Source of the DNA: Phaeotremella fagi
Lineage: Eukaryota > Basidiomycota > Tremellomycetes > Tremellales > Phaeotremellaceae
Length of the DNA: 64,000 nucleotides
Assembly (NCBI GenBank): GCA_001599715.1
Contig: BCHU01000003.1
Coordinates: forward strand, 1,240,001-1,304,000
Direction: 5' to 3'
The position numbers were made by a program, and so were the translations under genes. Of the stretch, positions 12,913-17,160 are shown piece after piece. Positions within the stretch are counted from its first letter, which is position 1. Each line of letters starts with the position of its first letter. The notes under the pieces were generated by a model, which had not been told where the DNA came from, made no database searches, and worked only from the letters and a program-made list of their open reading frames with translations.

Positions 12913-15900
12913 ATGCCCCTTCCATCTAGATTTGGGGCATCCAAGTATCGTAACGCGACGTTGTACACGCCGCCGAGGGAAGAATGGTTGAGAAATTCTT
13001 TACCCGCACCGACATCTTCAACTGGATCAAGTTCATTGTCGACTTTTAGTAGTGAGATCAAATCTAATCGTGAATGGATAGTTACTTGCACTGCAGGTGG
13101 TGATTTGAGTTATCGATCGCATGTTACTGGTGATGGTGTTGGTCTCGCCAAGGTTGGTGGGGGTGGTGGAGTTGGAGATTGGGATTTAGGTGTTGTTGAG
13201 AGTGGTCATTGGGAACTTGTTGTTGGTGGTTTAGATGGTGTTGTGAGTATATACTGACTACGTTGATTTGGCTGACTCTTTCTTAAGATAACTGTATATA
13301 CACTGCCAACTTTGTCATCTTCCCCAGCACCGCTGAAGGTACTTCAAACCATTCAAACTGGATCACCTGTCACCAATCTCTCCCTACATCCAACAACACC
13401 CTCAGTCCTCCTTGCGTCTAGCGTAGCATCTCCAGCTACGATCTACAACCTAATAGACTTGTCTGAGAAGCTTACCTTAGAAATACCGCCTGAACCCAAG
13501 GGATTGTGGTCATCCACTTGGTCCAACGATGGCACATTAGTCGGAGCAATCACCAAACGAGGAGCTTTGTATGTCTGGGAACCAAGAGTCTCAACAACAC
13601 ATATTGCAACTCGTCAACTCCCAATTCAACCACTTAAGCCAGCTCGATTATCTTTCATAGGATCGAATCGAATCTTCATAACCCATTTTTCAAAATCAAG
13701 AGACAGACAATATTCATTATTTGAATCTCCTAAAGTCTCAACCCAATTGTCTACAATTTTCACTCAATCGCTGGATCAAAACACATCGCCTCTAATTTCG
13801 ACCATTGATCATTCCAGGGAAATCATATACTTATCTGCTAGGGGTGATATGATCATTCGACAGATTGAATTAACAGGATCGTTAGGATTTCAAGAAACTG
13901 TTCATCCTCTTCAAACACCTCTTGTTACTTCTGGTTTGGTTTTGATCTATCCTTCGTTCTTGCGTGTCATGCTAGCAGAGATTGCTATTCTTTTGTTGGA
14001 AACTACTGATAAGGATGGAGAATGTCTGGTGCCTTTTGGAATTAGAGTACCTAGAAGACAATTGATTGATTATCATGATGACTTGTTCCCAGATTTCCGC
14101 GGTTCATGTGGGTTCAACATTGGTATTCTCACTGATGACGCGTAGCTACTGAGCAATCAGGTTCCGAATGGTTCTCTGGAAGTGATAAGGCACCTTTGCC
14201 ATTATCGTTGGATCCTGCACGAAGGGGTGCATGGGAGAAAGACTTGTCCTCTAGACCTGTAGGCAACAACTCGTCGGTCGAAAACCCTTCAGAAGCTCAA
14301 TCACCCCCAACTTCCGCCCTTGACCCGACAATAGCCTCTCCACCTGCTAAACCAACAATTGAAAAAGTGGCTCCAGCCATACCAACTCCGAAATCTGAAC
14401 CAGCGCTACCCTCACCTGCACCTGCACCTGTGGAGAGCAAATCATCATTGCCTGGTCCATCAGCAGCGATCTCACCTTCTACCGCACCCACAACTATTCT
14501 CATTGATCCAAGTCTTCCTCCACTACAGCAAGACGAAACTTATTCCAGTACAAGCTACAAGATCAGGATCGTTGGAGAGCATGTTATCTCGCAAGTGCAG
14601 AGACATAAGGAAGAAGACAGAAAGACACCTCTTTTTGTCGGTTTGCAAGGTCCCCAGGGATGTGGAAAGACTACTCTCTGTGATGCCTTGCTTGGATATC
14701 TCAGAGAGTCACCGAGAAATCTCAAAGTCGCGGTGCTTTCATTAGATGGTGAGTTGACTGATTATAGTGCATTTGAGCTTACTCCCTTCAGACCTATATC
14801 GTACACACTCTGGTCTTAAGGACTTGGCTAATAAACATCCAGACAATACCCTACTTTCTGGTCGTGGACCTCCGGGAACCCATGATGTAGAGTTGGCGTC
14901 TTCTGTCTTACATTCTGTGTCCTCGATCAATGAAGGAACATCTGTGGAACTGCCGATATTTGATAAAAGTCTATGCGGTGGTGAAGGTGATCGAAGTGAG
15001 AAGACTATCAAAGTTCAAGGTCCACTCGACGTCTTTATCTTGGAAGGATGGTCAATGGGATTCCCATCGTTATCACAATCAGAATTACAATCCGTTTACG
15101 ATCAAAAACCAAAATATTCTTCTAAACAACCTTTGAAATCGCTTTCCGAACTTAACGATTATTTGAAAGAGTTCTCTGAAGCTGTTTATAAATATTTCAA
15201 AACGATCATTCAAGTTCAACCCACATCTTATGAGAATGTTTTTGCATGGAGGACTGAACAGGAACATCACATGAAAGCTGGTAATGGTGGACGTGGAATG
15301 AGCGATGAACAAGTTCAAAAGTTTGTTGAGAGGTATATGCCTAGTTATGAGATATTTGCGGAGGGCGTTTGGAGGGACGACATGCCTTGGTCCGGTCGGG
15401 GTTTGCGGTTGTTCTTTGGGGAAGGTAGAGAGGTTCAGAAGATTGAACTTCCCAAGGGAATTGTGAAGACGGCTCAGAAGACTGAACCCACAAAAATCGA
15501 ACCTGCGTTGAAGGAGTTACCGCCAATGCCTACCCCACAAAGCGTAGAACCACGCTCTTCAACGATAACAGCACACAAACCATTCAACCCAAATTATTCT
15601 CGAAACTTCCTAGCGGGCAAATCACCATTGATCCCAACGTACGATGCCCTTCCTCCACTGGCCTCTTTACATCAAGATTCATCTATACTACGGATCAACT
15701 CCAAATTAGCGCTTTTTCTGATCCAGGGTACAGGTGGTAGATTATGTGTTCATCCTCTGAGCAAGAAAGGTAGGCTCAGTGTTGGAGGCGAAGGATATCT
15801 CAGTGGTGGAGTTGAGATTGTTGATTTTGATCTGGAGAATTTTATCGGTGAGAAAGGAAGTAGAGTCGCTGTAGCTGGGGAAGATGGTGTAATTCGTGTT

Positions 15901-17160
15901 TGGACGGTTCCAGATACTGGAGTTACTGGTGCAGGACCTGAACCAGAGTTGGTATTGAGAGGTACGTCACTTCGAGGGGAGGCGGGTAGACTGATGTGCT
16001 TTTAGGTAAATCTATTTCACGGATACACCAGATATCTTTCCATCCTACGGCAAAAGATCTTTTGGTCGCGGTAACCACTGATTTTGAGAAACCTTGTCTT
16101 CATTTCTTCGATCTTTCATCGGGTAACGAGGTCAAGGTGATAGAGATTGATGCTCCTGGTGTAAGTCCTGCCTCGATCACCATATCTTGACTAAGATCAA
16201 TCTTTCAGATTTTCAACCTTAGTTTCTCACCTCATGGGGATCGAGTTGCGATAGTGACAAAATCGAATACCATCATTGTCACAGATCCCAGAGGGTCTAA
16301 ATCCATTATAGGGAAAGCACATGATTCACCTAGATCATGTCAGTTAGCATGGATCGATGACTCTCACTTGGTCAGTGTCGGTTTCTCTAGAGGTTCGCAA
16401 AGGAAGATTCAACTCTACGAAATAACCGATTCAGAAATCAAGACGACAAGCACGAAAACGATAGACGTTTCACCGGCCGTCTTGTTCCCCATCTTTGATC
16501 CTGACACGTCAATCCTGTATATCTGGGGTAAAGGGGAACGTCAAATACAGGCTTTCTTGATCAATCTCTCGAATTCCTCGAATCCGATCGTGAAATTACC
16601 TAGCTTCACCACTGGAAATCCACAAGTTGGATTCTGTTTTTTCGATAAGTCTCTGGCCGACGTCAAGAAAGTTGAGATCATGAAAGGTCTACGATTGACT
16701 GCGAAAACTTTAGAAGAGGTTTCTTTCAGTATCCCAAGGAATAAGGTTGGTGTTATTATGGAATGCTTGATTAACGATTTTTCCGATTAGCCTGATTTCT
16801 TCCAAGATGATATCTACCTCCCGACGCTTGATGTTGGTCATCCCTCTACCACAGCTGAAAAATGGTTACAAGGCGATAACGCGCCTTTGAAGTTGATTGA
16901 TCTGCAACCGGAAGGGATGGTTAAACGTGAGTTAGATGATGATCTCAACAAGATTGCTTGTGCTGACTGTAGTTCTAGTTTCGGAAGCTCCTCAAACTGC
17001 GACTAAAGTCAAAACTAAATTCGTACCTGCTGCTAATATCATGACTGAGGAAGAAAAGAAGAGGAAGGAGATGGATGAGTTATTCCAGAAAGCCAAATTG
17101 GAGGATAGTAGTGATGAAGAAGAGAGTAAAGGATTGGATCCACCTGATGACGATTGGTAG
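12913..17160 (+). CDS. Coronin-7-like tandem coronin with embedded glycerate-kinase-like P-loop domain
   Basis: Eight exons (12913-13242, 13288-14107, 14161-14748, 14792-15961, 16006-16160, 16209-16745, 16791-16926, 16973-17160) give about 1307 residues. Residues 1-400 are a coronin repeat: N-terminal RFGASKYRNAT and the C-terminal hallmark VPRRQLIDYHDDLFPDFRG. Residues about 525-785 are a Tda10/D-glycerate-3-kinase-type P-loop kinase: Walker A GPQGCGKT (547-554), SLDDLYRTHSGL, SGRGPPGTHD, PIFDKSLCGGEGDRS and the ILEGWSMGF segment, all key motifs kept. Residues about 830-1230 are a second coronin repeat (DPDTSILYIWGKGERQ, PDFFQDDIYLPT). An acidic tail ends DPPDDDW, as in Arp2/3-binding tails. 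Kinase and second coronin lie in one uninterrupted exon (14792-15961), so the fusion is not a splicing guess. Expected role: actin or endomembrane trafficking; kinase substrate unknown. Confidence 0.87.

What the first reader, a model, noticed from the sequence alone, without database searches (positions are those of the whole stretch)
12913..17160. Kinase domain embedded between two coronin repeats in one polypeptide
The sequence shows a coronin-7-like protein in which a complete Tda10/D-glycerate-3-kinase-type P-loop domain sits between the two coronin repeats. All diagnostic kinase motifs are retained (GPQGCGKT, SLDDLYRTH, GRGPPGTHD, DKSLCGGEGDR). The kinase and the second coronin share a single uninterrupted 1170-nt exon, so the link does not depend on my splicing. 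Established: coronin-7 proteins act at actin/trans-Golgi, and Tda10-like kinases are separate proteins in budding yeast. Inference: a metabolite kinase may be physically coupled to actin regulation, or its ATP switch may regulate coronin. I do not know whether this architecture has been described.
Basis: partly seen in the sequence, partly recalled or inferred. Interest (0 to 1): 0.85.

Follow-up and report, generated by a model that had tools for sequence, protein, structure and literature searches.

The report
Tandem coronin carrying a glycerate kinase
A yeast-like fungus encodes an actin-regulating type of protein with a complete sugar-acid kinase built into its middle; the fusion is real and conserved in relatives, but this arrangement was already described in related fungi in 2011.

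Summary
One + strand gene (12913-17160, eight exons, about 1312 aa) encodes coronin 1, linker, kinase, linker, coronin 2 and an acidic ...DDDW tail. The kinase is a class III (plant/fungal) D-glycerate 3-kinase of Tda10/GLYK type (PDB 6ckg, E=1.3e-64). Homologues repeat both joins: 32 of 62 have all three parts, and 24 further proteins join kinase to coronin 2.

The architecture is not new: Eckert et al. 2011 (PMC3203266) described it in Filobasidiella/Cryptococcus class-3 coronins, with a short coronin-dUTPase fusion that this genome also has.

Added here: fused kinases form one clade, spanning Tremellales and Trichosporonales, with apparent losses (Vanrija albida). A same-phase intron is shared with a stand-alone paralogue. 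The P-loop is identical in 33 of 33 fused kinases, and the kinase is as conserved as coronin 2. AlphaFold2 of a relative gives ordered domains on disordered linkers (pTM 0.48), favouring a tethered active enzyme over an allosteric switch. The only dUTPase detected in this genome is the coronin-fused one. No expression or activity data were available.

The parts
12913..14246 (+). Coronin domain 1 (residues 1-417), exons 1-2 and start of exon 3
   Evidence: Coronin-1A 2aq5 E=7.3e-23 by sequence; gene model
14247..14555 (+). Linker 1 (residues 418-520), 103 aa, 77% P/A/S/T/E/K/Q/G
   Evidence: Mean pairwise identity 0.233 among 33 fused proteins against 0.626 for the kinase; length 74-160 aa over 33 rows; matching stretch predicted disordered in P0030
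14556..15450 (+). Class III D-glycerate 3-kinase (Tda10/GLYK) domain, residues 521-804, interrupted by intron 14749-14791
   Evidence: 6ckg E=1.3e-64, 7xpc E=2e-40, 1odf E=1.2e-39
14649..14672 (+). P-loop GPQGCGKT (residues 552-559)
   Evidence: Identical in 33 of 33 fused kinases
14749..14791 (+). Intron 3, phase 1, inside SLD|D; shared in position and phase with the stand-alone paralogue on contig C6
14860..14886 (+). GRGPPGTHD motif (residues 608-616)
   Evidence: GRGPPGTHD in 32 of 33 fused kinases, GRGLPGTHD in 1; the motif's DNA pattern matches at 2 places in the genome
14962..14994 (+). DKSLCGGEGDR motif (residues 642-652)
   Evidence: K, S, second G and GDR 33 of 33; D 32, L 30, C 27, first G 23, E 30 of 33
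14792..15961 (+). Exon 4, 1170 nt, joins the C-terminal part of the kinase to the start of coronin 2 without an intron
   Evidence: 24 database proteins with the same join, 22 of 24 ending their match at coronin-2 position 131-136, near the window's exon end at 130
15451..15570 (+). Linker 2 (residues 805-844), 40 aa here, 38-131 aa over 33 rows
   Evidence: Mean pairwise identity 0.201; lengths; matching stretch disordered in P0030 model
15571..16925 (+). Coronin domain 2 (residues 845-1250), exons 4-7
   Evidence: Coronin-1C 7sty E=1.9e-45; Pfam WD40_4 E=4.9e-26, best stretch 1195-1237
16926..17160 (+). C-terminal tail ending ...GLDPPDDDW; position and acidic end of the CA (Arp2/3-binding) region of class-3 coronins
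   Evidence: Sequence; tail mean pairwise identity 0.685; CA region at class-3 coronin C termini from PMC3203266 section 8

Best explanation
This is the class-3 (coronin-7 type) tandem coronin of a Tremellales-like fungus. It carries a probably active D-glycerate 3-kinase domain (D-glycerate + ATP -> 3-phosphoglycerate + ADP), tethered between its two propellers by long flexible linkers. The kinase came from a duplicated fungal GLYK/Tda10 gene, intron included, that inserted into the linker of the coronin gene, most simply once, before Tremellales and Trichosporonales separated. The protein most likely works as a bifunctional tether: the coronin domains and acidic tail place it on actin/Arp2/3 or Golgi-type membranes, and the kinase works there as an ordinary enzyme. 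Shown here: one open gene, domain identities, motif conservation, single kinase clade, shared intron, linker divergence, predicted domain-plus-linker structure of a relative. Inferred: enzymatic activity, substrate, actin binding, location and any benefit of coupling.
For: Exons bridge both joints. 32 of 62 homologues have coronin, kinase and coronin in this order, with 2 more truncated ones. Kinase closest to solved GLYK/Tda10 structures by sequence; the model of relative P0030 matches murine coronin-1 (target TM 0.89) and 6ckg (target TM 0.92) by fold. P-loop identical in 33 of 33; mean pairwise identity kinase 0.626, coronin 2 0.626, coronin 1 0.569, linkers 0.233 and 0.201. Fused kinases plus a partial Tremella protein form one group, SH-aLRT 97. 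Same-phase intron in the SLD|D motif of the stand-alone paralogue. Disordered linkers and pTM 0.48 in P0030. Prior report of the same fusion. Glycerate-specific, 3-PG-forming activity of yeast and Arabidopsis members (passage).
Against: No transcript, protein or assay data were available here; Eckert et al. [quoted passage not shown] The kinase is missing in relatives that fall among the fused ones (P0032 and P0038 Vanrija type, P0037 Cutaneotrichosporon sp. HIS471) and in P0036, so the coupling is dispensable in some lineages. That coronin tree needs at least 3 changes of state on its firm branches, so one gain is the simplest reading rather than shown. The kinase tree is a quick one on selected rows with some long branches. 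Substrate identity rests on family membership. P0030, not the window protein, was modelled.
Confidence: 0.8

Rival explanations
1. Passive passenger (overlaps with the best explanation: same anatomy and active enzyme, but no benefit from the link). A neutral fusion kept because both parts are needed and cannot easily be separated.
For: Kinase-free tandem coronins fall among fused ones. Some lineages keep stand-alone kinases too; Kwoniella sp. DSM 27419 has both (P0016 fused, P0077 stand-alone).
Against: The fusion is found across two orders with a strongly conserved kinase, although a stand-alone GLYK paralogue is also present in this genome.
Confidence: 0.3
2. Regulated switch: ATP or glycerate binding in the kinase changes the arrangement of the two propellers and so controls actin binding, or actin binding controls the kinase.
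For: The kinase sits between the two propellers rather than at an end; the P-loop is identical in 33 of 33.
Against: Linkers are variable in length (74-160 and 38-131 aa) and poorly conserved, and disordered in the P0030 model, whose pTM of 0.48 gives no defined domain arrangement. Relatives without the kinase keep both coronin domains.
Confidence: 0.12
3. Pseudoenzyme: the kinase fold serves only as a binding module.
For: Substrate and activity are untested for any fused member in what I read.
Against: P-loop, S.DD, the EGW and the W, R, Q and E of WR..QE are kept in 33 of 33; GRG.PGTHD in 33 of 33 apart from one P; D.. and E of DKS...GEGDR vary in 1 and 3 of 33.
Confidence: 0.08
4. Gene-model artefact: two or three neighbouring genes read as one.
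For: No RNA evidence for this genome; splice candidates were picked by eye and frame.
Against: Exons bridge both joints; 32 of 62 homologues and 24 further proteins repeat the joins; long bridging exons were noted independently for Filobasidiella.
Confidence: 0.03

Closest known systems
Class-3 coronins of Filobasidiella/Cryptococcus with a D-glycerate 3-kinase (Eckert et al. 2011, PMC3203266)
   Same: Same domain order: coronin, D-glycerate 3-kinase, coronin, C-terminal CA region; stand-alone GLYK elsewhere in the genome; long bridging exons
   Different: The stand-alone paralogue here groups with Naganishia proteins (SH-aLRT 92, not a firm branch) rather than with the C. neoformans type 6ckg
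Coronin-7 (CRN7) of animals
   Same: Tandem coronin domains (PMC4855144 abstract; homologues)
   Different: No kinase match in the named animal homologues returned (P0046, P0051, P0052, P0055-P0059)
Class III glycerate kinase / Tda10 / GLYK (PDB 6ckg, 7xpc, 1odf)
   Same: Whole kinase domain and motifs; E=1.3e-64 to 6ckg
   Different: Those are stand-alone chains of 290-337 residues
Short coronin-dUTPase fusion of Tremellomycetes (Eckert et al. 2011)
   Same: Also present in this genome (C11): a separate enzyme-coronin fusion
   Different: C-terminal dUTPase on a short coronin; here it is the only dUTPase detected, whereas the paper reports a further dUTPase in Filobasidiella

Membership tests
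Class-3 (tandem) coronin | Two coronin domains in tandem | tested here: met
   Both halves match solved coronins by sequence, E=7.3e-23 and 1.9e-45
Class-3 (tandem) coronin | C-terminal CA region, no coiled coil | tested here: inconclusive
   Acidic end ...DDDW seen and conserved; no C-region profile or coiled-coil prediction was run
Class-3 (tandem) coronin | Binds F-actin / Arp2/3 | not testable with these tools
   No assay
Class III D-glycerate 3-kinase (GLYK/Tda10) | Sequence and fold of the family | tested here: met
   Sequence of the window domain. Fold: model of the relative P0030 only. No Pfam family reaches its cut-off for the window domain; PF00485 PRK scores 13.5 against 22
Class III D-glycerate 3-kinase (GLYK/Tda10) | P-loop and family motifs intact | tested here: met
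   33 of 33 fused kinases keep GPQGCGKT; other motifs as listed
Class III D-glycerate 3-kinase (GLYK/Tda10) | Phosphorylates D-glycerate to 3-phosphoglycerate | not testable with these tools
   Activity reported for yeast and Arabidopsis members (passage in PMC2063504), for no fused one in what I read
Kinase-bearing class-3 coronin of Filobasidiella/Cryptococcus (Eckert 2011) | D-glycerate 3-kinase between the two coronin domains | tested here: met
   Same order, and in one kinase group with the Cryptococcus proteins P0014 and P0018

The most novel reading that the evidence does not exclude
In this fungal lineage coronins are general actin-docked enzyme carriers. Both coronin genes identified here carry a metabolic enzyme, the cell's only detected dUTPase is a coronin fusion, and the actin/Arp2/3 state may place or control glycerate and dUTP metabolism.
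Probability: 0.15. Interest if true: 0.75.

Novelty: new member of a known kind. Interest (0 to 1): 0.35.

Why it matters
The fusion has been in print since 2011, and its authors wrote that its advantage needs experimental evaluation. In ten library searches (listings of open-licence papers, most hits not opened) I saw no later paper that takes it up. The present data narrow the question: one kinase clade, presence across two orders, conserved catalytic motifs, divergent linkers, and natural kinase-free relatives for comparison. A genome whose only detected dUTPase is coronin-fused gives a second handle, since dUTPase is generally needed for life (recalled).

Tried and rejected
Pfam scans for the kinase gave no model above its cut-off, so family lists show these proteins as WD40 proteins; the kinase was placed by sequence against PDB. 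NCBIfam gave only sub-threshold P-loop kinase families for the two kinases. A PF08953 search of the genome found nothing, and its control genomes gave nothing either, so it says nothing. Separate genes: rejected because homologues repeat both joins. Retroposed kinase: disfavoured because the SLD|D intron is shared in position and phase with the stand-alone gene. Fusion limited to Cryptococcus: rejected. P0037 as clean evidence of loss: weakened, because it keeps the stretch just before the kinase (P0028 residues 1-485 are 78.8% identical to P0037 1-491), so it is a recent deletion or an annotation error. Two weak matches of the kinase on contig C1 (E=0.8 and 1.45) were not taken as family members. 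Trees used selections: 79 rows (33 fused, 44 of 156 stand-alone proteins, the C6 paralogue, 6ckg; the 24 kinase-coronin-2 proteins and 2 truncated ones left out), 44 rows (33 fused, 11 of 25 kinase-free coronins). Both trees drew long-branch or outgroup warnings. Homologue lists show the best 120 of 884 and of 912; one search scored a capped set of 7979 candidates.

Full report
What is there. The region 12913-17160 (+) reads as one gene of eight exons with GT-AG introns of 38-48 nt and a protein of 1312 residues. Among the splice candidates that I listed, 12 in-frame models of 1305-1314 aa are possible; they differ at three splice sites, none in the kinase. The P-loop lies in exon 3 with the end of coronin 1. 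Together the two exons bridge both joints.

Domain identity. Coronin 1 and coronin 2 match solved coronins (E=7.3e-23; E=1.9e-45). The middle matches D-glycerate 3-kinase 6ckg (E=1.3e-64), GLYK 7xpc (2e-40) and yeast YGR205w 1odf (1.2e-39) (names of 1odf and 6ckg). No Pfam family reaches its cut-off for the kinase. The protein ends in ...GLDPPDDDW, where class-3 coronins carry the CA region (PMC3203266 section 8).

Relatives. Of 62 homologues returned for the whole protein (a capped 7979 candidates were scored), 32 have coronin 1, kinase and coronin 2 in this order (some of these metagenome proteins are incomplete at an end); 2 are truncated with kinase and coronin; 25 are coronins without a kinase match; 2 match coronin 2 only; 1 matched none of the three parts. 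Named fused sources include Cryptococcus, Kwoniella, Naematelia, Kockovaella and Cutaneotrichosporon and a Tremellales isolate. The taxonomy puts Kwoniella, Kockovaella and Naematelia in Tremellales and Cutaneotrichosporon and Vanrija in Trichosporonales. Searches with the stand-alone paralogue and with the kinase alone (best 120 listed of 884 and of 912) added 180 proteins: 156 kinase only and 24 kinase plus start of coronin 2. Of these 24, 22 end their match at coronin-2 position 131-136, close to the window's exon end at 130, as single-exon reading frames from intron-blind gene finding would (inference).

Constraint. Over the window protein and the 32 homologues with all three parts, mean pairwise identity is 0.626 for the kinase, 0.626 for coronin 2, 0.569 for coronin 1, and 0.233 and 0.201 for the two linkers. 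GPQGCGKT is identical in 33 of 33. In SLDDLY the S, both D and the Y are kept in 33 of 33. GRGPPGTHD is kept in 32 of 33, with one P to L. In DKSLCGGEGDR, K, S, the second G and GDR are 33 of 33, the first D 32, L 30, C 27, the first G 23 and E 30 of 33. This fits a working enzyme; it does not prove activity.

Origin. In the genome (22.6 Mb, 24 contigs) I found two members of the kinase family: the fused one and a stand-alone gene on contig C6 (the GRG...GTHD pattern matches at exactly these two places). Both have a phase-1 intron inside SLD|D, so the kinase came by gene duplication with its intron rather than by retroposition. In a quick kinase tree of 79 selected rows the 33 fused kinases and a partial Tremella mesenterica protein form one group (SH-aLRT 97). 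Nearest outside it are unnamed metagenome proteins, Kwoniella sp. DSM 27419 P0077 and Vanrija humicola P0194 (SH-aLRT 97 for the whole set of 40). The C. neoformans enzyme 6ckg is distant, and the C6 paralogue groups with Naganishia at 92. Some end branches are long and the outgroup was not one side of a branch. A tree of the coronin parts (44 rows) places kinase-free proteins among the fused ones: Vanrija albida P0032 with P0038, and Cutaneotrichosporon sp. HIS471 P0037. P0036 is unresolved; Mrakia P0039, of the order Cystofilobasidiales, lies outside. That tree needs 4 changes of state (3 forced by firm branches) and carries long-branch warnings. With the single kinase clade, the simplest reading is one gain before Tremellales and Trichosporonales split, then losses. 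P0037 keeps the lead-in sequence of the kinase and may be an annotation error.

Structure. A relative short enough to be modelled (P0030, 1182 aa, from a metagenome, incomplete at the C-terminal end) was folded with 69 aligned sequences: mean pLDDT 83.5, pTM 0.48, stretches 307-410 and 719-784 on either side of the kinase under pLDDT 50. Foldseek's first solved matches are coronin-1 (2aq5, target TM 0.89) and, as the first kinase, 6ckg (rank 8, target TM 0.92). The low pTM and disordered linkers speak for a tether; they do not exclude contacts in the cell.

Prior knowledge. Eckert et al. 2011 (PMC3203266; [quoted passage not shown] They also report a short coronin-dUTPase fusion in Tremellomycetes. 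My ten library searches (open-licence papers, listings) showed no later treatment by title or abstract start; most hits were not opened. PMC2063504 (passages) gives the activity of the yeast and Arabidopsis family members; PMC10970406 (passages) names plant and yeast members as class III; PMC4855144 (abstract and outline) gives the Golgi/actin role of mammalian coronin 7.

The second fusion. In this genome the C-terminal part of a short coronin splices in frame into a complete dUTPase on contig C11 (dUTPase E=1.6e-46 and WD40_4 E=1.4e-15 in one frame). The upstream exons of that coronin were seen only as reading frames and weak tblastn matches; the full model was not built. It was the only dUTPase found by family, by protein and by motif. 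These searches are six-frame and intron-blind, so a divergent second copy is not excluded. Eckert et al. report an additional dUTPase in Filobasidiella, so this genome may differ.

Verdict. The best mechanism is a tethered, active glycerate kinase on a tandem coronin (0.8 for that description; the passive-passenger rival overlaps with it, so the odds do not add up to one). An allosteric link is possible but unsupported.

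Noticed in passing
G000 contig C11:86173-87463 (L010 4173-5463): A short coronin whose C-terminal part splices in frame into a complete dUTPase; the only dUTPase detected in the genome, whereas the 2011 paper reports an additional one in Filobasidiella.
   Followed up: partly
G000 contig C6:1159251-1160253 (L003 1314-2316): Stand-alone GLYK/Tda10 paralogue of 306 aa that shares the SLD|D intron with the fused kinase and groups with Naganishia proteins rather than with the C. 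neoformans enzyme 6ckg.
   Followed up: yes
P0037 (Cutaneotrichosporon sp. HIS471), residues 449-491: Tandem coronin without the kinase that keeps the sequence found just before the kinase in Cutaneotrichosporon oleaginosum P0028: recent deletion, alternative form or annotation error.
   Followed up: partly
P0077 and P0016 (Kwoniella sp. DSM 27419): One species has both a fused kinase and a stand-alone kinase close to the fused clade; possibly a trace of the donor gene.
   Followed up: partly
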